A stretch of 64,000 nt of DNA, taken from Isoetes taiwanensis (Eukaryota > Streptophyta > Lycopodiopsida > Isoetales > Isoetaceae). The notes below the pieces were generated by a model that worked only from the letters and a program-made list of their open reading frames with translations, had not been told where the DNA came from and ran no database searches. Position 1 is the stretch's first letter. Each line of letters begins with the position of its first letter. A program made the translations under genes and the position numbers. The DNA lies in the NCBI GenBank assembly GCA_021234155.1, contig JAJEKV010000002.1:44133203-44197202 (forward strand). The letters run 5' to 3'. Positions 1 to 41,321 of this stretch are shown here, piece by piece.

Positions 1-135
1 CTGCAAAGACATATTTATCATACATCATAACGCATGATGTTCTACCCAGGCTCAGGCTCCTAGGGAATCGACGGCCGACTTGGTCTTCTAGAGGTCAATC
101 AGATCGAGGTACAACCTTGGCCCTCCAGAGGTTAA

Positions 136-765
136 TCAGACATAGGTAGACCAATGGCTTGGGTTGGGAAAGAAACAATGGACGTTGGGCAGCCCAGGTA
201 ATAGCACTTTCAAGTTCCTAATTAACCTCCATTGCATTAATATCCTCATCTCTAAGGATTGCAATCTGCACCGCTTCATGGACAGATTCTTTGATGATAT
301 TCCGCATAAGAGAATGAATTCAACAAAATGTTGTTGTAACATTCTAGGTCCTATTTTTGTTGCAAACCTCCCGCTACAAGAATGAGGCAAAGCCTCCAAA
401 TAGGGCGAAGACTCCAAATAGGGCAAAGACTCCAAACCCAGCAAAAAGACCCGTTGACGTTTACATTGTTCAGGGCAAGCCATTGTCCCCAATATGTCAT
501 TTCTGCTTACATCTGTATTCAACAAATCTGGTGCAGTAACGTTAATGATATTGGAAGCAGCAGGATTTAGGTCTAGAACAGAGTTTTTGCCTGTATATAT
601 GGTCACAAAAAACTTTGAGGCATCCATATTTGGTGCAGAGTCGCCATTCAGACATATTGCTGTAGACGATACCCCTTCGTTCACAACAGAGCTGAAATTT
701 TTTCTGCCATTTTTATGTACTCCTTTCTGGCAAGCATTCGAACTTTCTTCTTGAAGATAGGGCAA
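136..765 (-). other. Unrecognised open frame of 209 codons
   Basis: The frame is long for this AT-rich DNA and its N-terminal half has a balanced composition, but I recognise no domain. The middle reads through a short 18-bp repeat (386-455) and is therefore low complexity. It stops next to the copia scrap at 725-877. It may be an exon, a piece of a decayed element, or chance. No splice sites or start context decide between these. Confidence 0.2.
386..455. repeat. 18-bp minisatellite, about 4 units
   Basis: The unit is close to GGCAAAGACTCCAAATAG, repeated with small changes. It explains the repetitive NRAKTP-like peptide seen in one frame here, so that frame should not be taken as a gene. 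Confidence 0.75.
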
Positions 766-877
766 GAGTACTTCTCAATGGCGCACTCATTAGACAACAA
801 TTTGAAAATAAAAAAATAGAGTTAACATTTTTGGCAATCCACCATTGAGGAGAAAATTCTAAAAATCTTTTGCCTAA
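725..877 (+). mobile_element. Copia fossil scrap, gag-side region
   Basis: This stretch matches 34770-34925 in inverted orientation over about 150 bp at roughly 85% identity by eye, including the shared run CTAAAAATCTTTTG. The other copy lies beside the gag end of a copia element, so this is a small relic of the same family. It ends where a LINE fragment on the minus strand begins at about 880. It is old and very short. Confidence 0.6.
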
Positions 878-879
878 GA

Positions 880-1185
880 GGTCCACACCAGGGCCCGTAC
901 TATGCAGGCTATCACGATCGGCCTCTGTGTCCACCTGCACGCACCTGTGCTCCTGAACTTTCCATCTGGCGAACCACTGATCTCTCTTACCCCTCCAACA
1001 GGCCCTGAGCCGCTGCGGGCGCATTGCCACAGCGTAAGCCAGGTGCGGGAGCCGAGCATCACCCATATTAACCACTTTCTGAAAATAGACGATGTGTCTA
1101 TCAAGGGCAGGCTTGGGGCAAAGGAGAGGTGTGAGGCAAGTGAAGGGAAGGAAAAAGAAAGGAGAGTGATTGCTCTGTACAACTA
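880..1185 (-). mobile_element. LINE family A fragment (linker between RT and C-terminal domain)
   Basis: Minus-strand reading gives VYFQK, then GDARLPHLAY, then RPQRLRACW and WFARWKVQEHRCVQV. These line up with the copies at 57587-57990 (GDTRLPNLAL, GPQRLKACW) and 33980-34033 (ARWNVQEHRCIHV). This part lies between the reverse transcriptase and the C-terminal cysteine motif of the element. The copy has neither end, and the ALDRH part is one base out of phase with the later part. It is a truncated relic. Confidence 0.8.
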
Positions 1186-1357
1186 TGCTAGAGTATTATA
1201 TCTACGATCATCGAAGCATAAATGTAAAGGCCATCCAATAAAAAATATTGAAAACGAGCTCAACAACAAACTATAGGTTAAATTTCTCTGTCTTTTACTA
1301 TGTTAAACAACTTCCACATTGACAAAGCGTGTGTTCGCATTTAGAGCTCAACTGCAA

Positions 1358-1475
1358 TATATAGCATAATAACGTGTTTTTTTTTTATGTTTTTGTACGA
1401 TTTTTACTAAGGTTTTTCTATGATTTCAGTGCTATATTTGATGAGGTGTCCTAAATAGTATTTCTAGAGTGCGCC
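1358..1475 (+). repeat. Copy of the 120-bp terminal repeat also seen at 59.1 and 63.3 kb
   Basis: From ATAGCATAATAAC through a long T run, a CTATGGTTTTT-like stretch and TCTAGAGTGC, this matches 59121-59240 in the same orientation and 63213-63332 inverted. No inverted partner was seen near this copy, so it may be a solo end or a small MITE. Confidence 0.55.
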
Positions 1476-1631
1476 CTTTCTGGATCCTTGATTTTTGTAG
1501 CACTTTTCAATAATCACCTATGAATGTTCAATATTATTCCAAATTGAACATGCAAGGCTCGAGTAGGGTTCTTTGCATCTGTGCCTCTGTTTAGGGTTCT
1601 ATGACAGACTAGCCCCGATCTGTGCCAAGGA

Positions 1632-1985
1632 GGTCAGCAAAGAAACCAAGGATGTGTGTGCGACCATTTCATTCCATTTGTTGCTGAAATACTCGTTCAT
1701 TTTTACCCTTTGGCAGATAGGATCCATCCTTTACAGGGCAGCATCTACAAATGCTAATATTGATGATTTACTAGATTTTTGACCTTCAGCAAAGAAACCA
1801 CGGAGGTGTGCGCGACCATTCCATTCCATTTGTTGTTGAAATACTTGTTCATTTTTACCCTTTGGCAGGTAGGATCCATCCTTTACAGGGCTTCCAGGCC
1901 GAGCTTATTTGCAGCAACGAAGGAGTTTATTTCTCTGAAGCATCTATAGATGCTAATATTAATGATTTACTGGATTTTTGACCTC
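1632..1985. repeat. Imperfect tandem duplication, unit 150-200 bp
   Basis: Both units begin near CAGCAAAGAAACCA, contain TTTACCCTTTGGCAG and GGATCCATCCTTTACAGGGC, and end near GATTTACTRGATTTTTGACC. The second unit (from about 1786) has about 50 bp that the first (from about 1632) lacks. No gene is visible in either. The rest of 1190-2470 shows nothing I can name. Confidence 0.8.
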
Positions 1986-2473
1986 CTTTTTTCACTGATC
2001 ACCTCATACAAACAGGGGATTTTATGGCGATTCTGCCTTGGAAGCTGGAGACTCCTACGTTATGCATCCAGGTTTGATCTTTTACACCATTTCTGGATCT
2101 TGCATTTTTTTTCTCTCTTTTCGACTCTGTTTTGCAGTCCATTTTGATGTCTCATTTTATGATGTGTAATTTATGTGTATTCAAACCTAAACTTTCCACT
2201 TCTTGATGCAGCTAAAACCATCATTCATTTAAATTGGATTTATGTTTGTTCCAAAAGCACGCCACTTTTGCATACCCTTTTTTCAATATAGTGTTGTGTT
2301 GTGTGACATGCTGTTTTGCATTGTTGCAAATTTTTGCATTATAGTAGTGGGTGATTTAACATTTTCTTGTTTTAGAGAGAAGAATGTTGTGTTTGATTAG
2401 CATTTGTAGATAACAACACATCAATATACACAGAACACTTTTTACATTGTATTCACTTGATATGAAGATTACA

Positions 2474-3112
2474 TCATGGAGGGACTAGTCCTTTCTTTGT
2501 CAAATAACTCTCAAGATAGGGATCCATCTCCTTAGTCCGATCTAGTTCTGGATGCGTTTTGACAACATCTGATACTGTTTTACCAGCAGCCAAGCCACTC
2601 ATGATGGACATGAATAGTACTAGAAACTCATCTGTTCAGTAATCTTGTGGAGTATAAGTTGGTGGATTTAGAGCCTGACCTTGATTATAAAAGCACTTAA
2701 GAGCATTATCATCTACTATTATGATGTCCTCTTCTTTTGAGTGCCAAGCTGATCCATCATAGTACCAAGATGTTTCACGAAGACCGGTTTGCCATCCGAA
2801 TCTCTTGGATGTGGAAACTTTATACACTTACTTTGGTCCCAAATCATCACAAAGTCTCGATTCATGCCTTGTAACACCCTAAGTACTTCATCAACATTTA
2901 TGCGTTCCATTGAGGACCAGATGGCAACTTGAAACAATCTGAACGCCTCATTCATCATATCTTCTAAGTGTGGACGAGGATAGATCCACTTAGTATTCGA
3001 TTCTAGAGGGAGTTGCTCGAAGTCATCCCTGTTAATAAGATTCTTAGGAAACGTTTTACACAGGACACCATTCAGATCGAAGACAATGATTTTGTCACAA
3101 GCAGGTGGAGCC
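2474..3112 (-). pseudogene. Exon 4: HAD / FCP1-NLI-interacting-factor-like domain
   Basis: The exon opens with ACDKIIVFDLNGVLCK, the first HAD motif in FCP1/SCP style. The usual second aspartate of DxDxT/V is Asn here (DLNGV), which would be expected to impair phosphatase chemistry. Then follow YPRPHLEDMM, VAIWSSM (motif II with S), FVMIWDQSKC, DGKPVFVKHL and IIIVDDNALKC (motif III, DD), and a C-terminal NPPTYTPQDY, all in family order. Two faults are visible: a one-base shift between VFVKHL and WYYDGSAWH near 2765, and an in-frame TGA after QDY near 2635. Beyond it the frame stays open for about 52 codons to the stop at 2474. Homology to the HAD fold is clear; whether it acts on protein, nucleotide or nothing is unknown. 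Confidence 0.7.
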
Positions 3113-3221
3113 CTGAACCATGGAAAACAAAGAGTTAGCCATGCAAAAGTGGTCTGCAGTACACGCCAAGCACGTTTTGTCCGTCACAAGTAAGCTACAT
3201 ATCGCACATGGCGTGAATTAC

Positions 3222-5037
3222 CTTTCATCATCGCCGTCATCCCCAGCAGTCGCAGCATCTACTTCACTCCCCGGATGCTTACTTCCAGAAGCATCAACTC
3301 CACGGTTTAGTTCGGACACGTTCTCTTCTATGAAAGCTACCACAGGGTTTTGATTCCTAACCTCAGTGGTTGAATCTGAGCTTGCATGATCATCCTGGCT
3401 GGTATCAGGAACTACTGTAGTCATACCCCCAAGCTGGACATTACCAGTTGCAATATTATCAAGCATGGACTCCATATTTTTCTCCATGATCTCACGTTCC
3501 CGCGCTAGCATTGCGGCCTTCTCCTCGGGGGTTGCATTGCTTTTTGAACATTCTGGAGTTGCACTTGGAGGCTTTTGTGAACTAGTAGTCTGCTTCTGCC
3601 CTTTGTAAGGTACCAAAGCCAATGGGTTTTTATCTTTGACAGGACCCCAATCAGTCGTGGCTAGTACCTTTTCGAAAAACACTTGAAGGAAATCCCTGGA
3701 CTGGTCATCGTTGACGAAACTTAAACATCTTCTTGATGTCTTCAGGGCTTCTCTACCAATATACCCTCCAACATGTAATTCACGGCAAGTGGTATCAAGT
3801 GGTGCAAATGCCTCAACAAGATAGCTTGCCAGATTGATTGCAAACCCATGTTTATTCAAGGGCAGCAATTCCAGAGTGATGTCTTTCCGGCAGAGATTAG
3901 GAACATCAAATTCCTCGCTTTTATTCGCTTCATCCTCATCATCTGCTTTGTAGAAGACATTTTTCAAGTTGGGTTCATCCAAAAGAAAACACTGCCATGC
4001 ACCTTTATCTGATGCCCCTTTATTCTTAGCTACCTCATAGTCGTCATCTGGCACAAGGGATATCATTATGAAGATTATACAAGCGCTTTTAAATTGCATC
4101 CTCAAATCAGTATCCTTTGTCTCAAAGAGAAGAGAACCTTCCCTAACGACCTTTAGATATTCCAAGTCGTATGAAGCCACCAAAGCATGCATATGAGGCT
4201 CTCCTGGGGGGCATATGATGACAATAGTAAAGAGCTTCTCAGTTGTTAAGCCTATGCAGCTAGCAAAAAAACTGTTGTACTCTTGTTGAGTCATCCCTTT
4301 CTCTCCTTTTGCAGTCCTGCTATCCAATACAAACAGAGAAATATTGCGAGGGCCTATTGTTGTATCGGGTAGAAGACCTTTATAGCCAGTAGAGACCAGG
4401 TATTGGAGTGCAGGTAAGTCACTACCAACATCTTTCAGGACGGCAACCTTTCTTCTCAGCTCAGCCATCACCTTATCTGATAGTTTTGTGTTGTGCTGTT
4501 GATTCTTTGATTTCCTGTTTTGCAGAAATTCCTTCGACCAAAAGACGTATTTCTTGATGTCATCAGCAGACATGCCATACTTGTCTAGCAGGCCGAGTTC
4601 AGACAATGTTACATCATCAGATAGCTTCTGAAGTTCTTCACCAACTGCTACCTTCATAACTCGCATTTTCTTTATATGAGTGCAACAATCAATGAAGGAC
4701 ATTTTGTCCTTAACTGAAGAAGACTTCTTGTACAGAACTTCTTTATTTATGCATTGATTTAACAACCAAATGATTTCATCATCTTGAAGGCCCTGTACTT
4801 TCCTCATCTCTGTAGTCTTCAAATCAAATATTGAAGTATCTTGAGGAGGCACTCTTCCCATTGCGTCTGGGAGTTGTTTCTGAGCATAAGCATCCCAGAA
4901 CTTGTTCCACTTCGCCCAGACTTCGTCCTTAGCGAAGACGATCTTGCAGGCATCTGTAGGACCTCTGGAAGATGCTTCAGACGTCTCGCCTGCTTCCTCC
5001 CCAGTTTTTTTTATGACGGAGTTGTTCCACGTAAGGG
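3222..5037 (-). pseudogene. Exon 3: long open middle exon, family not recognised
   Basis: About 605 codons are open without interruption, the best-preserved coding stretch in the window. The exon starts after a TTCAG acceptor and ends at AAAG|GTAATT, joining exon 4 in phase. Visible parts are a Trp-rich start (VWAKWNKFWDAY), a helical region (ELQKLSDDVTLSELGLLD), a beta-rich core (NISLFVLDSRTAKGEKG, LFTIVIICPPGEPHMHAL) and, further on, HVGGYIGREALKTSRRCLSF. The tail is Ser/Thr/Asp-rich and looks disordered. The order of LFVLDSR, IVIICPP and the GG-GREAL-RRCLSF block recalls a degenerate N4/N6-adenine-type methyltransferase, which in bacteria and phages can sit behind ParB domains. I see no intact DPPY-like motif, so this is only a suggestion. 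Confidence 0.55.
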
Positions 5038-5137
5038 CTGAACGAATAAGGAAATCATATCAGCCAATATGAGCAGGGCATACAAAAATGAACCGCTTTT
5101 TAAAACAAGCAAACAGGATAATCAGGAAACGACAAAG

Positions 5138-5674
5138 CCAGGCATGCCAATTCGCGCTAGGCGTGTATCCATGCTGGCAATTCACGGATGAATACACGCC
5201 AGACACGAATTGGCAATGTACTGCCTGATCAAAATGCAACCGGCGTGGCTGCATGAATACACTTTGTATTTTTTATTTTTGGTCCAGCTAGACTAGTCAT
5301 CTTGTACAGACTAGCTAGAAATATCCCACTGCCGGTCAAGGCAACCAAAGTGGAGGACACGTATAGGCACAAGTTCTACCACGTCGGGGATCATGGCCGT
5401 ATAACCCCAGTAACCAACTCCCAAATATAAATATACACTGGCCGGGTTTGAACCCCCGACCAAGTGCACATTTATTTTGGCATTACTAGGCCTATACCAA
5501 CTCACCATACATCCATTGGGCAAAACTTTAGCCATACATGCACACTTTGTAGGCAGGATGAATACACGTTAGGCGCGTTTTGATCAGGCAGTACATTGCC
5601 AATTCGCGCCTGGCGTGTATTCATCGGCGAATTGCCAGGATGGATACACGCCCGGCGCAAATTGGCACGCCTGG
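5138..5674. repeat. Foldback element with ~100-bp inverted arms, split by a SINE
   Basis: The left arm (5138-5235) and right arm (5579-5674) are reverse complements with few differences; 29 consecutive bases pair perfectly around TGTACTGCCTGATCA. The arms are made of the palindrome family described separately. The loop contains the SINE at 5263-5557. The whole lies in intron 2 of the ParB-like/HAD gene. Confidence 0.85.
5263..5557 (-). mobile_element. tRNA-derived SINE with 10-bp target-site duplication
   Basis: On the minus strand the element has a pol III A-box-like run GGTGAGTTGGTATAGG (5491-5506) and, about 36 nt on, a B box GGGTTCAAACCC (5444-5455), the spacing of a tRNA. It ends in an A-rich tail (AAAAATAAAAAATAC). 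The flanks are the direct repeats ATGAATACAC at 5253-5262 and 5558-5567. This is the solitary form of the unit that makes the tandem array at 41.3-44.8 kb. The 70-odd codon frame across it is not a gene. Confidence 0.85.
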
Positions 5675-5740
5675 ACACACGTTGGACCTACTGTTATTCC
5701 TACTTGATATATCTAACTAAATGCCACCTAATATACTAAC

Positions 5741-6915
5741 CTTTTATAAAGAAAGACTTCGCCCATTTCGTTCAATGTTGTACTACTAATCTCTGCCAGG
5801 TCCTCTGCAGGGGTATGGGGGCTTAGAAACCGACACCTCCTGTGGTTGTAATGTAGCAGATACATGGTTTGTCATGTTTGCTTAGCCTGGTTGGATAGGG
5901 ATCGTTGTGCCTCAATAGAATGTTGTCCATCAATAATAAGGAAGCATACATTAGGGTTCTCCACTGTAAGCTCCTCTAGTGTTGTCCAGCTGGAGTGGAG
6001 CATCCTTTTTCCTATCCCAAGGAAGCACGTCTGCTGGCATATGAACTTGGCCTAGATTCCTCACCATCGCCCTCAAGATTTCTCTAGCATGCTCAGGGTC
6101 ATACATCCTGCTAACAAATATTGACTTATATCTCACCAGACGGTCAACATGGATGGGATGTGTAAAAGATTGGCCAAGTGGGTAGTTGCCTGCATACTTG
6201 ACTAGCCTACTCATTGCCTCTAGCTGCGATTTCTTTTCGGAGTCATTTTCTGCCAAAATGCCATCCATTGTTGCAGCTGGGATGTCCTTTCCTAAGTCCA
6301 GCAATCTTCGTACATCCCTGATATCATTTTGATGCTTCAACTCTTCCAGGTAGTAACTTGGAGAAGGTCCTCGCAAAGCTCTCCTCACTGTAGACACCCC
6401 TTCACTTATAGACACTGGAGTGAGAGCAGCATTTTGAGGCCTTCCATACTTGAAAGATGACTCAGCACTCACGTCCTTCTTCATCAGACCATCTTTGAAA
6501 GCAGTTGCCCTCGCATGTGTAAGTCTGACGAGATCTTTCTTGTAGTTCTTCACAACCTCCACTAGGAGTTGACAACATATGTCATCCTGCTCCTCACAAG
6601 TGATAAGAATACCTTGTTTCTTCATAAGATCGGTCTCTTTCTTCCTGGAGTGTAACACAAGATCCACCTTACCATTTGTTTTGCCTACATCAACATACCA
6701 CTCCGCACTGTCATCTATCTTCTCCTCGGGGCATCAAGGATCTGTGTCTGCTCTGATAATAGATCCGCTATCATCCATCGACAATGCATAGGATACTGCG
6801 TCCTCATTAGGCTTTCCCTTCTTCTGTGAGCTTGAGGTCGCTGGAGTCTCTTCCGAGCCTCTTGCTTTCTTAGGAGGAGGTGTAACAATTACCAATCGGG
6901 TTTGTCTCTTCTTCC
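5741..6915 (-). pseudogene. Exon 2: basic N-terminal region and ParB/sulfiredoxin-like module
   Basis: The exon begins after TTTACAG and continues the basic, probably nuclear N-terminus (KKRQTR, PPPKKARG). After a linker, the segment THPIHVDRLVRYKS ... DPEHAREILRAMVRNLGQ ... MPADVLPWD ... NVCFLIIDGQHSIEAQRSL has the order of a ParB N-terminal domain: an I-x-V-x-x-L start, a helix of E/A/L residues, the G-Q-x-x-P turn, then a DGQH box where ParB has GERR/GEHR. Damage seen: TGA in DTDP-stop-CPEEK (about 6733), a shift between WDRKKDAP and the DGQH stretch, and stops in each frame of the last 150 bp. The exon ends at TAAAAG|GTTAGT (5741). The ParB match is by eye. Confidence 0.5.
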
Positions 6916-7397
6916 CTGTAAATGAAAGTGCAATACACGCTTAGCACGATTTCGAGTGGTCATCCATTCCGGCCAGGCTAAACTATACAGAATGGCATAC
7001 AGTCGCCAATTACATACACACTCAAACGGCGTGACAATTATAGAAAGGCCGAACAGTCACTCGAAGGCAGGCCAAATAAACACGGTCATACTAATTTACT
7101 CACAGGTGGATAAATTATAGACATAACAGTTAATCACGAACAGGACAATTTAATGCAGGAAGGACATTAATTATGCAAATGCAAATTTAAGTCACTGCTA
7201 TAAAATTAATAGATATGAGTATGAGCAGCTATAGAAATGATAGACAGGAGTATGAGCAGCTATAGAAATTTAAGTCACTGATATAGAAATAATAGACAGG
7301 AGTTTAGGCAGAAGATTTATTGACAGTAAAAACAGAGCAAACACTGCACAATAATCAGAGCAACGAACAGAAGCCTAAACACTTGAACAATACTGAC

Positions 7398-7458
7398 CTT
7401 GAATAGCTTCTCTCGTGGCTCGGCCTGAGTTTGGAGTAGCACGACCTTTGGGCGGCAT
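7398..7458 (-). CDS. Exon 1 of the ParB-like/HAD gene
   Basis: The ATG at 7458 begins MPPKGRATPNSGRATREAIQ and leaves one base that is completed by exon 2 across a GTCAGT...TTTACAG intron (7397-6916). The longer frame starting at 7613 reads through this exon in another phase and is a shadow. Confidence 0.55.
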
Positions 7459-7938
7459 CTTCGCGACGATCTTGAGCGCCTCGGAGTTCTTGCGCCTCGG
7501 AGTTCTTGAGCATCTCGGAGCAAGTCGGCAATCAAAAAGCCAGAAATGACATTCAAAAACTTATATAGATTTCCATAAGCCGAGTCGGTCGGCTTTGGAT
7601 CGACGGGTTTCATTCGGATCGACTTTTAATCGACGGTCCGATAGAAGCGAGCGGTTATTTAAATTTCGCGGATTGACGTTTAATCGACGGTCAGCAATCT
7701 TACGATTGCCCCAAATGGACGGGACGCGATTGTACGAGCATTTAATGGCTCTACGACCGCCGTATTGTGAAATTCCATAATTAGATTTCACTCAGCCGCT
7801 AAAAAAGCAGTACAATTAACGGATAATTTGAAACTACCACCTAATCTTGCTGCCAGCCTTTCTTGTCATTCGAACTCGAAAGAACTGGGAAGAACAGGAA
7901 GAACTCGAAAGAACTTGGAAGAAGCCGGCGCCTGAGCG
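7459..7938. promoter_or_regulatory. 480-bp divergent intergenic region
   Basis: It separates the minus-strand ParB-like gene from the plus-strand DUF8039-like gene. It contains repeated CGGAGTTCTTG/GGAAGAACTCGAAAGAAC-like boxes near each start and two copies of TTTAATCGACGGTC (about 7623 and 7678). A shared bidirectional promoter is plausible; no TATA box was pinned down. Confidence 0.35.
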
Positions 7939-8266
7939 ATGTCGAGCGCCTTCATGTAAGTTCATCTACTCTTCCAGATCCCAAGCTCTAAATTAATCCC
8001 ATAATCTTACGAGATTGAACATCGTTGGAGAGGAATGTTATATGCTGACGACGAATTTGAAGAGGAGGGTGGAAAATTGCAAGATAGAATCAATCGATCC
8101 GGAAGCAGTATGCCATGGAGTTCCTCTTGGAAATGATCATGTGAAGATCCTAGTAACCAGTTGCCATTTCAACGACGAAGCATTACCCAGAAGGCATCCT
8201 GATGGAGACACAGTCGGTGAAAGCATCGGAACCTTTGTTGCATGGCCAATAATTCACGTAAAGAAG
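7939..8266 (+). CDS. Small gene or exon pair with DUF8039-like domain
   Basis: A short first exon (7939-7955, MSSAF) meets a strong donor AT|GTAAGT and joins in phase to 8014-8266 after TTACGAG. The product continues NIVGEECYMLTTNLKRR, then AVCHGVPLGNDHVKILVTS, LPRRHPDGDTVGESIGTFVAWP, ending at AAGAAG|GTGAGT. The blocks C-L, H-G-x-PLG-x-x-x-V-x-V, LP and V-x-x-x-G-TFVAWP are the order of DUF8039, a domain usually attached to plant TNP2/En-Spm transposon proteins. Here it starts almost at the N-terminus and no transposase follows in the next kb. Without the final splice the frame runs to 8323. It may be a stand-alone domain, part of the same element as the divergent gene, or the start of a longer gene whose later exons I cannot see. 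Confidence 0.5.
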
Positions 8267-8466
8267 GTGAGTTTCATTTTCTTGGAAGAAATAGAGGAAG
8301 ATGCATCAGAAAAAGTAGATTGAGTGCTTATATTAAGATGCTCAAGCTGATTCTATCATATGTATGAAATTAAAACGCTTGCATACCAGACCATTCATTC
8401 AAAATTTCAAAACTATAAGGCCTGCAGACTAGACCATTCAGGAATTTAAAAAACACTAGACACTCT

Positions 8467-8745
8467 TTACATTATTTTAATTACATCTGTGTGTTGTTCC
8501 TCAGTAGTCTCAAATGCTGGCACAATAGTCCCAAATGCTGTTGTAACAAGAGAAGCTGGCACACAAGAATCTGGCAAATAAGATGGTGCAGCTATTGGGA
8601 TATTACCCAAAATGGCTTCGAGGTCTGCAACTCTCGTTCTCAGCTGAGCATTCTCCATTTCAAGCCCCTCTAGAGTACGACACAACTCATTGAATAAGCC
8701 TATGCTTGTAGCCACCCCCGACCACATCTCACCAAGAACGATTAA
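8467..8745 (-). CDS. Coiled-coil exon, family unknown
   Basis: The reading GVATSIGLFNELCRTLEG followed by LEMENAQLRTRVADLEAIL has leucines spaced as a coiled coil, then a Pro/Ala/Ser-rich tail to a stop at 8467. The open frame extends upstream to 9090, but that part contains the palindromes at 8838-8948 and looks like intron, so I place the exon's start near 8745 without a certain acceptor. The zipper suggests dimerisation; no function is assigned. Confidence 0.35.
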   Translation of the reverse strand, partial: LIVLGEMWSGVATSIGLFNELCRTLEGLEMENAQLRTRVADLEAILGNIPIAAPSYLPDSCVPASLVTTAFGTIVPAFETTEEQHTDVIKIM

Positions 8746-9202
8746 TATGGCAGTAAATATCAAGACCTTCATGAAACTATAAGATTGGCATAGGCCCTGG
8801 CAAGAAATGTCCTTCTGCCACAGGAGGAACTTCAGTTGAATACCTGCCAGGCGTATATTCAGTTGTATACGCGCCAGGCGCGAATTCATAAATCTGTAAG
8901 TTAGAGAAAAAAAAAACAAAATAGAGATTTCGCGCCACGCGCGAATTCCATTCATTTGTAATTTAAATGCACTACTAGCATTAGTAGAAGTCTGTTGAAG
9001 TGTAAACCCATTTAATGCATTAATAAAATTAGCAGAAGTCTTTGTTGTAAGAGGAAATATTAAGATAAGAAAGCTAGTTACTGTATGCAATTCACGCTAG
9101 GCGTGTATTGGACTGCTGTACAATTTAAACATTTTGCACACAATCATATTTCGCGCATGGCGTGATTTCAGTTGAGCTCCCTCAAAATTAAGAATGAAAG
9201 AG

Positions 9203-9305
9203 CCAGTAAATCCTTGTATTGCCATTGAAATATTTTACAGCCAGTAAATCCTTGTATTGCCATTGAAACTAAAGAAACATATTACAGCCAGTAGAAATAT
9301 TTTAC
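9203..9305. repeat. 38-bp tandem repeat
   Basis: CCAGTAAATCCTTGTATTGC followed by CATTGAAA occurs at 9203 and 9241, with a third, partial unit near 9287. It is a local duplication in non-coding DNA. Confidence 0.8.
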
Positions 9306-9477
9306 ATATAAGGCCTTTTATTAGAGTTGCCTAGCTCTGTGTTACAAAATTGCAAAAGTTTTAGGCAGTTTAAGAAGATGCCTAGCTCCATTCACAATAA
9401 TCATTTGAGGCATTTTTTGGAGATGCCCAGCTCGCTTTTCTTAACAAAAAAGTAAATAACAAAAATAAAAAACAAAT

Positions 9478-9870
9478 TCAGCCCTCTACCTCCTCCTCCT
9501 CTTCTTCCTCTGAGCTTTCATCTGCCATATCTTCAAGGATGGCTTCTGCAACAACTTCATCATCGGAGGAGGAGAGGGCGTCCATTAAAATCTGCTTCTT
9601 CTCTTCCTCCAATTCTTCTCGCCACTCCTCATCTGCTTCCTCCATTTCTTCTGCTTTTTCAACCTCCTTCTCTAGCTCTTTATCTGAATCTGCTAGAGTA
9701 TGGGGGGAAGGGCTGCTAGAGCTGGTACTGAGATACTCCTTTCCCGGGCGAAGCTTGCCCTGAATAAACAAGTCCTCGCATTCATCCGGTCTGTGGTGCG
9801 GAAGGCAGCCACAGTGGCATCTGCGAGAGGGGGGAATGGATTTCTTGATCAATGGGATGGAGTGGGCGGG
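9478..9870 (-). CDS. Acidic C-terminal exon with Cys/His cluster
   Basis: After a possible acceptor CTCTCGCAG the reading is RCHCGCLPHHRPDECEDL, then FIQGKLRPGKEYL, a Ser-rich linker, a Glu/Lys helix (KELEKEVEKAEEMEEADEEW) and an acidic end closing in EEEEEEVEG. The C-x-C-x-C...H-H...C cluster could bind zinc. The upstream extension of the frame crosses a GGAA microsatellite and is unlikely to be coding. I do not recognise the family. The acidic tail would suit a chromatin or nuclear protein, but that is inference. Confidence 0.35.
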   Translation of the reverse strand, partial: PAHSIPLIKKSIPPSRRCHCGCLPHHRPDECEDLFIQGKLRPGKEYLSTSSSSPSPHTLADSDKELEKEVEKAEEMEEADEEWREELEEEKKQILMDALSSSDDEVVAEAILEDMADESSEEEEEEEVEG

Positions 9871-9897
9871 ATGGGCCGGGCAGCATGGCTCACCATG

Positions 9898-9936
9898 GTA
9901 AGGAAGGAAGGAAGGAAGGAAGAAAAAGGCGCTAGA
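9898..9936. repeat. (GGAA)n microsatellite
   Basis: GGAAGGAAGGAAGGAAGGAA-type run on the plus strand, followed by purine-rich DNA. Confidence 0.9.
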
Positions 9937-10085
9937 AGGAAGAAAGGATAGGCGGTTGAAGGAATGAAGGGTTTCATGCAAGATATAGTAGTTGCATGCA
10001 AGGTTTCGTATAGGCACGGTTGTAATTATGATTCCATCACATCATACGAATTAGCTATCATTACTTCTATTGAATTAATTATGCC

Positions 10086-10310
10086 CTAGGTTATCATTAA
10101 TTCTCTACAGAATTACCCACATGTCAGCTATACTTAAAACCTATGTTGTCATTAATTTTGTATAATTACCTAGACCTCAGCTATACTTACAACCAACTTT
10201 GGCCTATCCAGAATTACGACCTATACTTACCTCTTTATTACTACTAACATATACCCTATGTTATCATTAATTTTGCATAATTACCTACACCTAAGCTATA
10301 CTTACAACCT
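10086..10310. repeat. Three decayed copies of a ~57-bp AT-rich unit
   Basis: The unit has GTTATCATTAATTTTGCATA then ATTACCTACACC and AGCTATACTTACAACCTA. Copies begin near 10086, 10141 and 10255; the first two are adjacent. No gene is seen in 10020-10900. Confidence 0.7.
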
Positions 10311-10955
10311 ATTTTTGGCTGCACTTACAACATATATTTGCCCATTTAATGGTTTTTTTGTATTTTTTGAAGTTCCCTTTAATCTATTCTCATAATTACT
10401 TTGTCCTTTTTTCGAACTAATATTAAGACATTTAACTTTATATAGGTGAAGCGTGTGGATCCTAAAAAGGGTAAAAATGTAATACCTATCCCCCCCAACA
10501 TGTTTCAACATTGTTATCACATGTTCTTATCACATTGTTACCCCATTCCTAGGATGGGTCCTATGACCCAACCAAGTGGCGAAGTGAAGTGGTGTTCTCA
10601 TTGAGCTTTGTAAAAAATTGAGTACAATTGGATCCCTCACTAGGGATAGATAAATTTGGAAATATGAACTTTAAATGCTCCGAAACTAGACAATCATCAA
10701 GAGCATGATGATACTGAAGAATGCAACAAAAAAGATGGTTTTATCCGCCACTTGGTCGATGCAAAGGTGAGAAGACCCCGTGACTGCTCCTCATCGGGAA
10801 GAACCACGTCTTCTTAGGTTTTGAGGAAATCCGAGCAAATAGTTGAAGCACGACCCCACGCACTATGGCTACCACAAGACCTTAAACAATCCTGCAGAAT
10901 CAAGGCTGAAAGAAAAATAACCCGTCAATGAGTGAGATGCCATAGGCAAGAAGAT

Positions 10956-11415
10956 TCGGAGGCTCCAGGGCTACGCCGAGTAAGAAACAACAGCCGACCA
11001 ATCGGGAACCGTCCGCGGAATGACCATCGCGGGAAAAAACAACCGATTAGTGCTGCCTCGGAGGCTACAGCGCCACGCCGAGGAGAAAATGAAATAACAA
11101 GTACTCTCGGAGGCTACATCGCCACGCCGAGAAAGAATGATAAGTATGCCTCGGAGGCTACTATGCCACGCCGAGAGAACATGAAAAAGATGAATGCCTC
11201 GGAGGCTATAGCGCCACGCCGAGAGAAATAAAAATATAAGAAGATATGCACTTACAAGGAACATCGACAAGACAATATGGGGAGTGCCAGTGGCTGCAGA
11301 AGAGCGACCCGAGAAGTATTAAAGATGGTCAACCAAAGAAGAAGATGAAGGAAGCTAGATGAAAACCAAAGAAAACGCAAATAACTATTGTCTCAAAGGC
11401 GACAATGCCATGCCG
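10956..11415. repeat. Hairpin minisatellite, CTCGG...CCGAG units
   Basis: Near 10956, 11054, 11106, 11148 and 11196 the unit CTCGGAGGCTACAGCGCCAC then GCCGAG recurs, with a weaker copy near 11390. Each unit can pair CTCGG with CCGAG. Spacing is about 42-52 bp for the inner copies. The peptides in both directions (PRRGENE-like and its reverse) are products of the repeat. Confidence 0.8.
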
Positions 11416-11527
11416 GAAAAGAAATGAATAAGCAAATATGTAGGTCCCAAGACCGCATTAGTGAGTAAACAAAGATAAGTAAAATCCAACTATTCCGCCA
11501 GAGAATCAAGGGAGGGAGGGTGAGGGA

Positions 11528-11642
11528 AACTGGTAGGGCAGAGAAGAAGGAGAAACTAGCTCAAGAGAACGCCGATGAATGAAAATAGGAGAAGAGGCAG
11601 AATAAATAGAAGATGTGAGATGAGGCGTCCCCATCCAAGGAA
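11528..11642 (+). repeat. 113-bp direct repeat, left copy
   Basis: The stretch from ACTGGTAGGGCAGAGAAG to GGCGTCCCCATCCAAGGAA is repeated almost without change at 17373-17487, same orientation, 5.85 kb away. Identity falls off sharply on both sides. It could be an LTR remnant of a non-coding retroelement or the edge of a segmental duplication. Confidence 0.85.
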
Positions 11643-11646
11643 TGTC

Positions 11647-11672
11647 GGTTCTATTGCTATCGCAATAGAACC
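11647..11672. other. Perfect 11-bp hairpin just after the left direct repeat
   Basis: GGTTCTATTGC, loop TATC, then GCAATAGAACC. It is followed by a 35-bp segment (CCTAGGATGGGTCCTATGAC onward) that also occurs at about 10549-10580. The right 113-bp repeat has no such hairpin after it. Confidence 0.8.
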
Positions 11673-11679
11673 GTGGCAT

Positions 11680-14600
11680 TCCTAGGATGGGTCCTATGAC
11701 ACAACCAAGTGGCCGATAGAAGAGGAATCCACCCTAAGAGAATAATGCAAACTAGGTTGACCGGAGGAAAAAAGACGAAAAAGAAGTGAAGAAATGGAAG
11801 ATAGGATGGCTAAAAGACAAGATCGAAGTGGTAAATCGTGGAACAGATGATCTAATAGATATCAAAGGGGCAAAGAGGCAACAAGATAACAGAGCAACGA
11901 GACAACATGGACAGGAGGAGCAAGTAAGAAGTACTAGAGTATCGAAGGAAAAGGCTGGTTGAGAGCAACGAGCAACCAAGGCAACCAGAGTAAATGGAAT
12001 GAGAAGAAGAAACCAAGAAAAATAGAGAAAAACAGGGATAAAGAGACGTTAGAGACGAAGGAGCAATGAAGTAGAATGAGCAAGCAATGGAGTAAACAAG
12101 GCAGAAGGGGCAAGCAAGGACTTCCAGAGTACCGAAGAGAAGACCACTAGAGAGCGAAAGAACACAACTGAGTAAATCGGAGGAAAAGGAGACCAAGAAA
12201 AATGGAGCAAAAAAGGGAATAAATAGAAGGCTGAGTCAATGAAGCAACGGTAGAATGAGCAAGTAAAGACGGAATGCGAACAGTAGGATGTATAAAAATG
12301 AAAGATACAATGGCACTAGAAAAGGAGCATAAAAGTGAAGGACACAATAGGACAATGCAGCATGAAATGGGGAAAGGAACTTCTGGGAAACCCGGAGACA
12401 AAGCCACGATTATGACGACATCAACAAAGTAAAAATATCAAATGACTAATGTACCAGTAAACCACTACACTAACAAAAACTATAAAAACCGAACAAAGCT
12501 AAATAGAAAGGTAACAAGAAGTCAAAGAAATCAAAGAAGGAACGAAGGAGTAATAATGTCAACAAAGTTGAACGAAAAACAACAAGCCAAAGAATGAAGA
12601 AAACAATGTAAACACAACAAAATAGAGAAATGATATCAAAATGGAGCTACAGAGATAATGAGGAGCAAAAAGAAATCAACAAAAAATAGATTGAAAAATG
12701 TGGAATAAAGAATGGTTGAAACAAGTCCACAAGGATCACGGGAACAAAATGAAACAGAATGCACAGATGAGGCTAATGGGACATATGGAGCAAGCGGAAC
12801 AAATTGGAGAGAATAAAGGCTCAATGCGAAAAAACACGAAACATAAAAAATTGGACTAAAAAGGGGGCCAAAAAAAGACTGCCTGACAAAAGAAAAATGC
12901 CTAGAAATATATAAGCCTACTAACAAATCTGAATAAACGAAAATAAAGGCATAAAGTACTTGAGAAACTTGAAATCATGGAAAAAATTGAGCAAACTAGG
13001 CTAAAGAACAAAATGAGAAGAGAAGCAATGGTGAGTGGATGGACCAAATTGAAAAAATAAGTTTAAAGGAATAACTGGAATAAGGATATCAAGCAATGAA
13101 GCAGAGTAAATATAGAGCAAAAGGACAACTGTGATAAAACGGACTAAGCATGAGAAAGATTCGCAAAAGACATTAAGTGGAACCAATTAGAACAATGGCA
13201 CAAAAGGAGCTAAAGGGACCAACAACAGGCAAATAGCACCAAGAGATCAGTTGTCTATGTGAAGCCGAAGTTAATGTACTTCAAAAAACAAAAATAATGG
13301 GAATAAATGAGCAAACGAGGCTAAATAACAAATGAGACAGAAGAAGCAATGGCGAGCGGATAGACCAATAAAACGAAACCATCTCATCGAGTAGGAAACA
13401 ACGGAAAAAACAACATCAAGCAACAAAGTAAAGTAACCTAGAGCAACACACAACTGCCATACAAGAACAAAATATAGTAATAGAAACCGACATAGTAATC
13501 GAAAACATAGTAAGGAAAAACAACATAGGAATCGATAACAGAGTAATGGAAAACCGACATCAAGCAACAAGTTGGGTAACTTAGAGCAACAGACAACTGT
13601 CATACCAAGACAAAAACATAGTAATGGAATGCAAAAGATGTCGAGTGAAATAACTAGAACAAGGGTATAAACGGAGGTAGAGGACCAACCTAAGGCAATT
13701 GGCACAAAGGAATCATTGTTTATGTGAAGCAAAGTCCACCTGAAGCATATGACTGAATAAATGATTGTGGTCTCCATGTACGAAGGGGTCTTGCACAGAG
13801 AGAGACATCGGAGTAAGGACCAACCATTAAGAGGATCAGAAACAGAAGAGCAAAGGAATACAAATCCATCGATATCACAAAAGTTACTAGAGAAATTCAC
13901 GAACGTAAAACAGCGAAACATATGGAAACCTAGAAGCGTGAGACCATAGAAGAGCAACGACGGAATACAAATTCAACGATATCACAAAAGTTACTAGAGA
14001 AGTAGTTGAGGTAACTTCAGATGTACACATAGACGTAGGATGATAGAAACCACAAAGTCTACGAACAATATGCAGGATATCCCAAATATGCATCCAGTGA
14101 TCAAATTAAACAAATGAGCTATAAAGGATACCAACTAAAAAATGGATCTAATGCCCGCACATATCTAAAGAAGAAGAATACATCAGATGAAATCATATAG
14201 GCACACGTAAAAAGCCTAAGGACCACAAACAACCATGTAGTACAAGTGTTATCTACCAAATGCACCTGACCAAAAAATGCATCAAACATACTACGTAGAA
14301 TATCGAAGACCAAGGAAACTACATGAAAGAAACTACATTAATGTCTCCAGAATAGACGAGATGACAATATTTGATGTAAATAGCACCCATCCATCTACGA
14401 AGAACATCATATCCAAAATAGAGCAAAAAATGATGGCACAGCGAACCAAACCCCAGATAGATTTCGGATATATATGATGAAAGAGATACTGTACTGACAA
14501 ATAAACACGTTCCTTTGAAAGCAACCATAAATGATAACAATATATGGAGATCTAGCACGTGATTGCGAGAACGACTAATAATAAGAATAAACCGAACCTG

Positions 14601-17250
14601 TAGTCGCAAATTATCCAAAGATCATAAAGTACCGTCTGCTTGATGGAGGAATCGTATGACCCATGAGGCGGCCTTGAGCCGATATCAAAAAGGCAAAACG
14701 AAAAAGCAAATGTTCCATGCGTGACAAATAGGAGAAAATGTCCACAGGGCAATAAACTCAAACTTGCAACTAGACCATATCCAGGAATGAAAGATGACAT
14801 ATGTTCAGTGGGGAACTCGAATCTGAAGGAAAATGAACAGTTGCAGAAGCTACAAACCGCGGGGCCTATTTACCGCAGGAGCAATGGCACTTGCTAGTGT
14901 ATATCAGCCAACATAGGGTCACATGATCAGTAGGAGTAAAGGAGTAATAGCCCATGGAACCAATACGACAAAAATGAAATTAAGGGGACAAATTGCAAGG
15001 AATAGACGCGACAGAAACCAATAGAACTAAAGAAGCAAAACTAACAAATGGACGAAACAAAATTATGGTGAAAATAGCGAGCTATACGACACCAATGGAA
15101 CAAACCGCGTGCAAAGGAGGCCATAAGGAATAGAATAGAATAGAACCACTAAGTGAATCTTCAAACTTGAATGCAAATTGGACATGGCGATGTCATACAC
15201 ATGCTAAACTAGAGCATAATCTCTATGTTCGATACAATTTCTAATGGAACTGATCACAAACAAGTTGGAAAACATGCAAGTTCAAACCAACAAATAACAT
15301 GCAAGCCCCAAGGAATGTTCCAAAAAAGTCGAATTTTCCAAGCAAAAAATACTCCTACACTCATGAGAAACTGATCGTATTATAGAGACAAAAGCAAAGA
15401 TCGAATTCAAATTATAGAAATCAAAACTTGAAGTTGTCATAGAGAAACCAATGTGTAAGCAAAACAAACCATCAAGCATCTCGGAGACTGGAGGGGCGAG
15501 TGCAAGCCTCTGTTAGAATTCCAAATTAGCCAACGAGGATCCGCAACAGCCACCGAAATAGAAGCCAGAAGCGTGGAGGGCCGAGGCTAAGAACCGAATT
15601 TGGATCTAACCCTTCAGTACCTGCACCATCAAGCTGGAAAACCAACAACTTCGCCAATGGGGCCAATCATGGCAAAATTCAAAATTTCTCAAACAACACT
15701 GCGTTAGTGAGCTCTTATGAAATCAATAGGAACATGGTCCCAACACATGTAGAAATAAATGTAGCATGAGTATGAATAAAACAGAAATGTGAAAATACCC
15801 TAGGGCCATACCTTGTGAAACTACCCTGGAACTCTGGTCTTACTTGAATGTGAAAACTCCTCACAACAACTATTCAACAATGCACTCATCGACTGGTGTA
15901 GATACGGGCAAAGGTGGCGAGAAAAACATACCCTCCTTGGCGCAAAGCAGATGATCCGGAGCCCAAAAAATTGATGTCTACTAAGGCAAGCTAGATGACG
16001 TAACAAAAAGAGATCAACCATTAGAATTAGCAAAAACAAAATTAGGGGAAAGCGGGACCCAGTATTCCCCAGCCCGGGGGGCAAGGGAAACCAAAACCGG
16101 GTAACCCTCTCCCAAAGAACCTGCGAGCTACGCTACAGAGGTGGAGTCGGTTTCGGTTTTGCAGCTTAGATTAGAAAGGAACAACCTCGTGGCTAGGTTG
16201 CAACAGAAGATAAAAGGCGGCAGAAGATAAAAGGCGGCAGCGATGGAATGCAGAAGATAAAAAGGGGGCCAGCGATGGACTGCAGAAGGAGAGGCTAGAA
16301 ACAGCGGAATCGGTCCATCAAACTCCATCGATCTCTTATGAAGCTATTTAGACAATATATGATTTCCAAGTCTACATCTTAATTATTCTAAACAATAAAA
16401 GGATCCAGAAGCTTAGAAAACAAAAGAATCAGTAACAATATCTGAATAAGAAAGTAACAGAGAAAAGCACGGATCTGACAGTACTTGCAATCAATCAGCT
16501 ATGACAAAGACTTCGCAAATGGCTCTGATCACAGAAATTCATCTATTCATTCATACTGCGGATCTCCTTTGAATGCAGCGAAGACCATCGAGAGTTCTAT
16601 AGGATGAATCTCTCAACCGATTAACCCCAAAAACGCGAATCAAAATAGCACAAAATCGGCGAAAAAGGCAAAGCGGCAAAAGAATCCTTGGCCTCTGCCG
16701 GCTAGAAACTAACCAAAAAGGGGCCCTAAACAACTCAGGTCTGCACAAGTCGATGTATTGAAGGATGTCCAAGCAGGAGATGACAAAGGCGGTGAAGCAG
16801 CCATAGTAGCCAAACAAAGCAAGAAATCACAGAGGCGATGAACTAGCCCCGAAATTCGAGACTAAGGAACTTGCAGCCAAATCATATACAGATCTCAAAT
16901 TTGAACAAATCAAAGACCCAAACAATCTAAACAATGGAAAGCACGAAACCACAAGCTAGATCCTCATTCATGTATTGGCACAAATTTAGACGAAAACCGA
17001 GATGCCACTAAAATAAAATCTACGAGGGAACAAGAAACCACGGACCTGTGTGTTTGAATCATGCAGCTTGCCGAAAAGAAGATTCTGGAATAAAGATACT
17101 ATTATCCTCCTTGTGCCGCTGCAAACCACTGAATCTGGCCGTGACAATCTATATCCGCTTGAATCTGAACAGGACCGTCCCTGGATCCTGCCACCCATCC
17201 TGTTGCTAGATGCAGCCGCGCTTCCAAAGAGGCGATGCCAACAGGAAAAT
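11680..17250. repeat. 5.5-kb A-rich block of decayed tandem duplications, no gene seen
   Basis: The plus strand is rich in A and AAG/GAA/CAA words. Many short imperfect tandem duplications are visible: ACCAAGAAAAATAGAG near 12009 and 12188, AGCAACAAAGT-type repeats at 13400-13620, TATCACAAAAGTTACTAGAG at 13880 and 13980, and GAAGATAAAAGGCGGCAG at 16205-16260. The frames are short, mostly on the minus strand, and rich in F/S/L, as expected from A-rich complementary DNA. A weak primer-binding-site-like ATGGCTCTGATCACAG occurs near 16517 (minus). The block may be a non-coding LTR-element derivative, but this is not shown. Confidence 0.45.
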
Positions 17251-19648: not shown

Positions 19649-19844
19649 CACTACTACAAAAATAGGTAGAAATGGCACAAAAGTGACATTTATCCTCCGC
19701 CTTTTTACCAGGCATAAACGTCACTTTTGTGCCATTTATGACGTTTGTGCTCCCCAAATGGCACAAAAGTGACGTTTATGCCCAGTAAAAAGGCGTAGGA
19801 TAAATGTCACTTTTGTGCCATTTCTACCTATTTTTGTAGTAGTG
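19649..19844. mobile_element. CACTA-type palindromic MITE, TSD ATA
   Basis: The element starts CACTACTACAAAAATAGG and ends with the exact inverse, and nearly the whole 196 bp folds back on itself (repeated ATGGCACAAAAGTGAC words). CACTA ends with a 3-bp duplication (ATA at 19646-19648 and 19845-19847) are the mark of the En/Spm superfamily. It interrupts a DUF7869 exon: removing it and one ATA restores the frame from CLPQYSYI to PKQINRAY. Confidence 0.9.
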
Positions 19845-21429
19845 ATACCCAAGCAAATCAATAGAGCTTATCCTTTGCAAGTCTCTCTGACAGGTGCAAT
19901 AGTGCATGGCTCGGTGCCAATTTATTATGGCCATTTTAGTTTGCAATTGTGGAGTGATGGTCCTGATTTTCATATTGGAAGTGTGATGAGGTGCTTGAGG
20001 AACTATGAGAGTGGTTATTCTGGTGACCTCCACAACCGTGGAGGTGGTAGCCAACCACTCTTCAGTGCATTGTTGGATAGAAAGCCTAATAATTTAGAGA
20101 AGTTTACGAAGGCAAGGTTTAGGAAGTTAGGTGCTTCTGAACATGTTGGAGCCTCAAGTTCATGTCCCCAACTTCGAGATCTACCGCCAAAGTTCCTCCT
20201 CCAACTTGACAATTGTGCTGGACAGAATAAAAACAGGTATATGTTCTCATTCCTATCTTATTTAACAGCTATGGGTGTCTTTGAAAGAGTGAATTTAGGG
20301 TTCTTAATGCCTGGACATACTCATGAGGATGTGGATGCATTGTTTCGGAAGTATAGTGCGCAGTTGAAATCTCAAACTGTGACCAATCTTCCTAGACTAA
20401 TGGAAGTTCTTAGTGAATGCATTTCACCTTCTCCTATAGGGTTGATCATACAAGAGATGCATGATTGGAAGAATTTTATCGAAGGTTATGGTCTTGATAT
20501 GGAAGGTCAATCTAGACCTCTTTAGTACACTTTCTGGGTCATGGGAAATAAGCCAATAATGCAATGGAAGATGAGACCTTCAGATGATAAATGGAGGCCA
20601 GATGAGGGAGTAACTATATGGCACGAAGATGAAAATGGTAAACCTAAGATTCCAAGGGGTCAACCAAAAGCTCTTAAGCCTTTTGCAGAGGCGGATTCAT
20701 TGCAAAGCACATTAGACGGCATTTCTGAATACATCAAGCATTGGAAAAATAACCCCGATGATACCAACCTTCCATTGATAGATTATTGGACATAGGTACA
20801 TGGATTATTGGGACAAGTAGACACATCCTCTAATGAACTGAAAGATGGATGGCTACCTAAGACTAGGTGGAGGGACTTGATAACACCTGAGGAAATTGAT
20901 GATGTGGTTAGTAGTATTCGCAAGTCGATGGCTCCTCCAGCTGCTGAAAAACACTATGTTGGTCCTAGGAAAGGAAGGCCTAAATATCTCGGCTTGGAGG
21001 ATTATGATCCCAAAGATGACTTGGTTTGCCATCAATTTGCACTTATAGTACCAGAGCGCAAAGAGATACCCTGTGTGGATGGGTTACACCATCTCAGAGG
21101 TTTACAAAGAAGTAGGTGACCGCAATGTGAACAAAGTTCATGTGGAGTGGTGGTGTCCAGTGCACCAGTTAAATGCAGTGGCAGAGGAAGAAAGGTATAG
21201 AGACTGTTGGACAAAGAGATGGAAGAGAAACCCTATTGAAGGGGATGATTGGGTTGAGTTAGATACTATTTTGTTTTCATGGACCCCAAAGGTCATCCCA
21301 GGCAAGACTGCTAGGGTTACAATACCTGTGGAAGTGAGGAAGAAAGCTATGATATCTCTAGGGGTCACTTTACACATTCCACTCAGTTATGCATCTAACA
21401 AATCCATGTTTTTTTAGAAATGTTCTATT

Positions 21430-41202: not shown

Positions 41203-41321
41203 TTATTTGAGTTTCTTGAATTGTGATGTTTGATAGCAACAATAAAGTTATCCACTGTAATACCATTGTTTTTCTTGCTGAATTAATCCTTCAATACATA
41301 AGGATTAGAAGTAGCCATATT

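What the first reader, a model, noticed from the sequence alone, without database searches (positions are those of the whole stretch)
2474..7458. Unfamiliar three-part protein: ParB-like DGQH module, large middle region, HAD domain
The sequence shows four exons joining in phase, with a ParB/sulfiredoxin-like order of motifs ending in DGQHSIEAQR and a C-terminal HAD core with FDLNGVL, IWSS and IIIVDD. ParB-type and FCP1-type domains in one plant protein is not an architecture I know. The first HAD motif has Asn for the second Asp, so the domain may bind rather than cut phosphate.
Basis: partly seen in the sequence, partly recalled or inferred. Interest (0 to 1): 0.85.

Follow-up and report, generated by a model that had tools for sequence, protein, structure and literature searches.

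The report
Broken plant gene with phosphatase-like domain
This is a damaged, multi-exon copy of what is probably a plant gene whose protein ended in a phosphatase-like domain that lacks one catalytic residue; the claimed bacterial-type ParB part could not be confirmed, and the gene sits in a stretch that looks like a mobile element with its own repeated DNA sites.

Summary
The gene model is largely real: minus strand, ATG at 7458 to TGA at 2474, four exons. It is not intact. Exons 1-2 and 3-4 join in phase, exons 2-3 do not; three in-frame TGA stops and about three frame changes break it. The C-terminal domain is a confirmed NLI/FCP1-type HAD domain (Pfam NIF, E 6.9e-10 open piece, 8.5e-16 with both frames joined), with Asn for the second Asp of DxDx(T/V). 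The "ParB" call rests on a DGQH motif: library searches gave only chance-level hits, and ParB profiles built here did no better than shuffles. The middle region has no credible hit; a methyltransferase-like layout seen by eye failed its tests. New here: a 22-bp CpG-rich near-palindrome occurs at 13 places in 3.16-9.17 kb (eight in this gene's introns, five at a neighbouring open frame), against 3 in the other 58 kb. A divergent neighbour weakly resembles En/Spm TNP1. Most likely this is a decayed gene of, or carried by, a plant transposon. No eukaryote collection was at hand, so intact relatives and novelty could not be tested.

The parts
7398..7458 (-). Exon 1, start ATG at 7458, 20 codons plus one base, donor AAG|GTCAGT
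   Evidence: joins exon 2 in phase
5741..6915 (-). Exon 2: basic/low-complexity N-terminus, then a region ending in the DGQH module; broken by TGA at 6734-6736, a frame change near 5950-5957 and TGA at 5872-5874
   Evidence: the last part (5741-5955) has flat codon usage, so the end is uncertain
5887..5943 (-). Stretch FLIIDGQHSIEAQRSLSNQ with the DGQH motif, readable only in the frame after the shift
3222..5037 (-). Exon 3: large middle region, 605 codons without a stop in the long frame; a frame problem lies in its first 33 bases (8-base run 5005-5012); no credible family hit
   Evidence: single-sequence folds of low confidence
2474..3112 (-). Exon 4: NLI/FCP1-type (NIF) HAD domain and C-terminal tail; motifs DLNGV, WSS, KPVFVK, VDD; broken by a frame change near 2755-2770 and TGA at 2636-2638; final TGA 2474-2476
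   Evidence: (PF03031)
3157..3220 (.). Two copies of the 22-bp near-palindromic site, in intron 3 (starts 3157 and 3199)
5149..5663 (.). Five copies of the site in intron 2 (starts 5149, 5190, 5560, 5601, 5642; 41 bp apart within each group), partly in a 100-bp inverted repeat 5138-5237 / 5575-5674 around a copy of the window's 341-bp satellite unit (5288-5559)
6931..6952 (.). One copy of the site in intron 1, near its acceptor
8838..9169 (.). Five copies of the site (starts 8838, 8865, 8926, 9089, 9148) in and just beyond a neighbouring minus-strand open frame (8467-9096) whose coding parts are not known
7997..8323 (+). Divergent neighbouring open frame with a weak, below-cutoff match to Transposase_23 (TNP1/En/Spm)
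   Evidence: E 0.0033, 17.7 bits against a cut-off of 21
7459..7939 (.). CpG-rich spacer between two divergent starts (CpG observed/expected 1.61 for 7459-7960, window 0.48), probable two-way promoter (inference)

Best explanation
A decayed copy of a multi-exon gene of about 1,230 codons, probably from a land plant and probably belonging to, or carried by, a DNA transposon. The intact protein would have had an N-terminal region with a DGQH module, a large middle region of unknown fold, and a C-terminal NLI/FCP1-type HAD domain. The HAD domain keeps the nucleophile Asp, the Ser, the Lys and the Asp pair, but has Asn where the general acid/base Asp should be. So it most likely binds a phosphoprotein partner (by analogy, a phosphorylated polymerase tail or similar) rather than dephosphorylating it. 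SHOWN: gene structure, lesions in this sequence, NIF domain, the Asp-to-Asn change, the clustered repeated sites. INFERRED: plant host, loss of catalysis, mobile-element origin, the role of the sites as binding sites for an element protein. UNKNOWN: whether the DGQH part has a ParB/Srx fold.
For: NIF domain: E 6.9e-10 open piece, 8.5e-16 over profile positions 1-155 of 160 with both frames joined. Splice sites and phases. Long exon 3 frame against simulation. Lesions. All three stops are TGA, as CpG deamination of CGA would give (inference); CpG is depleted in the exons (0.38-0.48), though also in the window as a whole (0.48). Site cluster: 13 of 16 places within 3.1-9.2 kb. Neighbour with weak TNP1/En/Spm match. 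Other transposon domains in the window: reverse transcriptase, integrase core, CCHC zinc knuckle, and a below-cutoff copia gag match.
Against: No convincing terminal inverted repeats or target-site duplication were found, so the element is not delimited. The Transposase_23 match is below the curated cut-off. The host was never identified (no genome held). Some frame problems lie in or near base runs and could be assembly errors rather than decay. The site motif was chosen after seeing it. NCBIfam's FCP1_euk and HAD_IIID1 models matched the HAD piece only far below their cut-offs, so it is a distant member.
Confidence: 0.5

Rival explanations
1. A live, ordinary plant host gene of the FCP1-like family; the stops and frame changes are assembly or sequencing errors, and the gene has nothing to do with a transposon.
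For: One frame change may lie at an 8-base run (5005-5012) and one at a short C run. The CpG-rich spacer at the gene's start is preserved. Codon usage is still strong in the right frames.
Against: Three TGA stops are not a typical long-read error (recalled). The exon 4 frame change is in no long base run. The site cluster and the neighbour with a weak TNP1-like match point to a mobile element.
Confidence: 0.2
2. One reading: a ParB/Srx-fold N-terminal domain joined to an FCP1-type domain, working as a nucleotide- or DNA-binding partner of the HAD domain.
For: Order of motifs in HPIHVDRL..SRMYDPEH..ILRAM..FLIIDGQHSIEAQ resembles ParB-type DGQHR proteins by eye (recalled, not a test).
Against: No library or PDB hit better than chance; tests against profiles built here failed; the Arg of the DGQHR motif is absent.
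Confidence: 0.2
3. The middle region is a dead beta-class DNA methyltransferase, so that exons 2-3 descend from a ParB-methyltransferase fusion of the kind found in phages and bacteria.
For: The stretch NISLFVLDSRT stands where vDLivtDPPY would, and INLASYLVEAF..DTTCRELHVGGYIGREALKTSRR where motifs X and I would (motifs recalled). Profile alignment placed both in that register over 182 columns, and the motif-I block's best place in the 937-residue reading was this one.
Against: Scores are not significant: 13 of 100 shuffles reached the first, 965 of 1000 reached the second. The motif-IV block did not place the expected stretch among its four best (its best was elsewhere, reached by 175 of 1000 shuffles). 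HMMER found nothing and a narrower profile aligned elsewhere. Catalytic motifs are absent. The idea arose by eye.
Confidence: 0.1

Closest known systems
NLI interacting factor-like / FCP1-SCP-type HAD phosphatase domain (Pfam PF03031)
   Same: Near full-length profile match with both frames joined, nucleophile Asp, Ser of motif II, Lys of motif III, Asp pair of motif IV (motifs recalled)
   Different: Second Asp of motif I is Asn (DLNGV); placed behind about 1,000 residues of unknown kind; broken copy
ParB/sulfiredoxin-fold proteins, DGQHR/DndB group
   Same: A DGQH motif after a hydrophobic strand-like stretch, seen by eye
   Different: No significant profile or PDB sequence match; Ser instead of Arg after DGQH
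CACTA/En-Spm transposons with a TNP1-type protein and repeated binding sites (recalled)
   Same: Neighbouring open frame with weak Transposase_23 match; many copies of one short CpG-rich site in both orientations
   Different: No CACTA ends or convincing terminal inverted repeats found; many sites lie in introns rather than near ends
Phage and bacterial ParB-methyltransferase fusions
   Same: Only a suggestive order of weak motifs
   Different: All profile tests negative; catalytic motifs absent

Membership tests
NIF/FCP1-type HAD domain (PF03031) | Profile score over the curated cut-off | tested here: met
   39.3 bits and 58.5 bits joined, cut-off 21.8
NIF/FCP1-type HAD domain (PF03031) | DxDx(T/V) with both Asp (catalysis; motif recalled) | tested here: not met
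   FDLNGVL, second Asp is Asn
NIF/FCP1-type HAD domain (PF03031) | Ser/Thr, Lys and Asp pair of motifs II-IV (recalled) | tested here: met
   IWSS, KPVFVK, IIIVDD, across one frame change
ParB/sulfiredoxin fold | Significant match to ParB, Srx or DGQHR profiles | tested here: not met
   libraries; profiles built here
ParB/sulfiredoxin fold | DGQHR-like motif | tested here: inconclusive
   DGQHS: four of five residues
ParB/sulfiredoxin fold | Fold | not testable with these tools
Beta-class DNA methyltransferase | DPPY and FxGxG motifs | tested here: not met
   DSRT and HVGGY in the presumed places
Beta-class DNA methyltransferase | Profile match | tested here: not met
CACTA/En-Spm transposon | Terminal inverted repeats beginning CACTA | tested here: not met
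   ends sought in 1-3150 and 9101-16000 only; no CACTA in 1-3200
CACTA/En-Spm transposon | TNP1/TNP2-type protein | tested here: inconclusive
   PF03017 E 0.0033, below cut-off

The most novel reading that the evidence does not exclude
A plant transposon encodes a large protein joining a ParB-like module, a dead ParB-linked DNA methyltransferase and a dead FCP1-type phosphatase, and this protein or its divergent partner recognises the 21-22 bp CpG-rich near-palindromes scattered through the element's introns: a eukaryotic mobile element with a ParB/parS-like site system tied to the transcription machinery.
Probability: 0.04. Interest if true: 0.8.

Novelty: new variant of a known kind. Interest (0 to 1): 0.38.

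Why it matters
If intact relatives exist, they would be a large plant protein family with a likely non-catalytic FCP1-type domain, probably mobile, with a candidate set of repeated target sites. That would offer a concrete case of a transposon protein that reads phosphorylated host proteins. As it stands it is a broken copy and a pointer to such relatives.

Tried and rejected
ParB: Pfam, NCBIfam, PHROGs and PDB searches, then profiles built from bacterial and phage ParB sequences; nothing significant. Methyltransferase: seen by eye; one profile aligned in the expected register, but no test beat its shuffles and the motif-IV block did not point to the expected stretch; kept as a minor rival. 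In one search the three profile settings gave identical output, so the softer settings had no effect there; the reading had no match, while 637 of 2000 shuffles had some match (best 7.2 bits). Cross-controls: exon 2 region against the methyltransferase profile, 98 of 100 shuffles reached it; middle region against the ParB profile, 83 of 100. A phage, plasmid or prokaryotic source: tblastn of exon 3 in phages found no match at E up to 1; exon 2 in phages and plasmids gave 1 and 4 records at E 1-10; part of exon 3 in plasmids 17 records at E 4-6; scans of viral contigs with exon 3 and exon 2 and of genome contigs with exon 2 found no relative, but such scans reach close relatives only. Structure: two single-sequence models of the middle region (264 and 590 residues) had mean pLDDT 38.9 and 35.6 and no fold search was completed (one search failed: library absent). 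Paralogues within the window: chance-level tblastn hits only. Terminal inverted repeats: none convincing (the best, 14 bases, had no target-site duplication). Papers: none held both ParB and NLI interacting factor, ParB, FCP1 and fern, FCP1 homology domain, transposable element and fern, or ParB domain, land plants and horizontal gene transfer. Searches listed papers, of which I saw listings and abstract starts only (20 of 2,265); none appeared from title and abstract start to concern this gene. No paper was opened.
Full report
Gene structure. The gene lies on the minus strand, from an ATG at 7458 to a TGA at 2474-2476. Exon 1 is 7458-7398, exon 2 starts at 6915, exon 3 is 5037-3222 and exon 4 is 3112-2474. 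Exons 1-2 and 3-4 join in phase with GT..AG sites. Exon 3 lies in a 613-codon stop-to-stop frame; the longest in 40 Markov simulations of the 64 kb window was 253. A codon score trained on part of exon 3 is positive in the expected frame in nearly all windows of exon 2 up to the frame change, of exon 4 and of its tail; windows in introns and flanks are mostly lower, the highest 0.32.

It is broken. Three in-frame TGA stops lie at 6734-6736, 5872-5874 and 2636-2638. The frame changes near 5950-5957, directly before the DGQH motif, and near 2755-2770, between the IWSS and IIIVDD motifs. If exon 2 ends at the good donor at 5740, a third change is needed, perhaps at the 8-base run 5005-5012. The last part of exon 2 has flat codon usage, so this end is uncertain. 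All three stops being TGA fits CpG deamination, which is inference; exon CpG is 0.38-0.48 of expectation, and so is the whole window (0.48). Assembly error remains possible for changes in or near base runs.

C-terminal domain. The open part of exon 4 matches Pfam NIF at E 6.9e-10, and the two frames joined with an X match it at 8.5e-16 over profile positions 1-155 of 160. NCBIfam's FCP1_euk (E 0.063) and HAD_IIID1 (E 0.0094) are far below their cut-offs. The best PDB match is UBLCP1 at E 0.025. The first motif is DLNGV: the nucleophile Asp is kept and the second Asp is Asn. From what is known of HAD phosphatases (recalled), that should remove the general acid/base and leave a binding domain. 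I recall that plant NIF proteins with DxNG motifs exist; no call tested this.

The DGQH part. Exon 2 pieces, alone and joined over the frame change, gave no ParB, Srx or DGQHR family in Pfam, NCBIfam (pieces ending at SNQ) or PHROGs at E up to 10; the hits were gp37_trimer at 0.047 and an uncharacterised PHROG at 0.12. PDB by sequence gave nothing for the 143-residue module and nine chance-level hits for a longer piece. I then built ParB profiles from the loci: 205 domain hits, 196 long enough, 46 after removing similar ones. The region scored no better than its shuffles (45 of 100 reached it). A motif block from 35 of the 46 found its best place over the DGQH stretch, but in the wrong register, and 1342 of 2000 shuffles reached the score. 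So the ParB label is neither shown nor excluded.

The middle region. No PDB or PHROG hit; in Pfam a below-cutoff UDG-inhib_P56 match (E 0.06, 0.11) and in NCBIfam two matches far below cut-off (E 0.01 and 0.45). Two single-sequence models are of low confidence. By eye its second half resembles the order of a beta-class DNA methyltransferase. A profile of 48 methyltransferase domains (of 221 hits, 193 long enough) aligned in that register over 182 columns, but 13 of 100 shuffles reached the score. The motif-I block (36 sequences) chose that place as its best in the whole reading, yet 965 of 1000 shuffles reached its score; the motif-IV block (42 sequences) did not have the expected stretch among its four best places. 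HMMER gave no hit, and a narrower profile from 76 of the 80 viral loci aligned elsewhere. I report it as a weak lead.

Surroundings. Within 3157-9169 there are 13 places with a 22-bp near-palindrome (AATTCGCGCCTGGCGTGTATTC, up to 7 mismatches), against 3 in the other 58 kb. Simulation gives 1.9 per 64 kb (largest 5 of 30 runs) and 0.17 per 6.1 kb of local composition (largest 1 of 100). Eight lie in introns 1, 2 and 3 of this gene; five lie in and just beyond a neighbouring open frame (8467-9096) whose coding parts are unknown. Groups in intron 2 are spaced 41 bp. Five sites have at most 3 mismatches, with none in 100 shuffles. The two arms form standard pairs in 82 of 130 cells and G-T in 20; with the axis moved by half a base or one base the figures are 27 and 6 of 130, and 41 and 21 of 117. 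I chose the sites and their orientation (one, at 8926, in a poorer register), and the motif was chosen after it was seen, so these figures overstate the case. The frequent G-T cells would follow from CpG-to-TpG change in one arm of a once more perfect palindrome (inference). Across a CpG-rich spacer (1.61) lies a divergent open frame with a below-cutoff match to Transposase_23. No convincing terminal repeats were found. Together this suggests a mobile element, not delimited.

Mechanism. Most likely the intact protein was an element-borne or element-associated nuclear factor. Its HAD domain would bind a phosphorylated partner without cutting, and its N-terminal or middle part would act on DNA or nucleotides. 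Only the domain identity, the residue change and the lesions are shown. The host is called a plant from the transposon types and splice structure (inference); no genome was held for the window.

Verdict. A real but broken gene with one confirmed domain, an unconfirmed ParB label, and an interesting cluster of repeated sites that the finding does not mention. The architecture may be new, but the collections at hand are of prokaryotes, viruses and plasmids, so novelty could not be tested.

Noticed in passing
3157-9169: Thirteen copies of a 21-22 bp CpG-rich near-palindrome, eight in introns of this gene and five at a neighbouring open frame, some 41 bp apart in alternating orientation.
   Followed up: partly
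7200-8100: One of two CpG-rich islands in the window (500-base windows), between the starts of two divergent open frames; the other is near 47000-48000.
   Followed up: partly
41320-44314 and 5288-5559: A 341-bp satellite array of 8.8 copies; one copy of most of the unit, about 93-94% identical to most array copies, sits inside intron 2 between 100-bp inverted repeats.
   Followed up: partly
19773-20525: Open frame with DUF7869 (E 5.2e-38); a 196-bp self-complementary stretch (about 90%) at 19649-19844 overlaps its 5' end.
   Followed up: no
22547-25637: LINE-like element with a reverse transcriptase split over two open frames.
   Followed up: no
8467-9096 and 9478-10041, minus strand: Neighbouring open frames ending in coiled-coil-like and very acidic sequences (by eye), possibly exons of further genes of the same element.
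   Followed up: no
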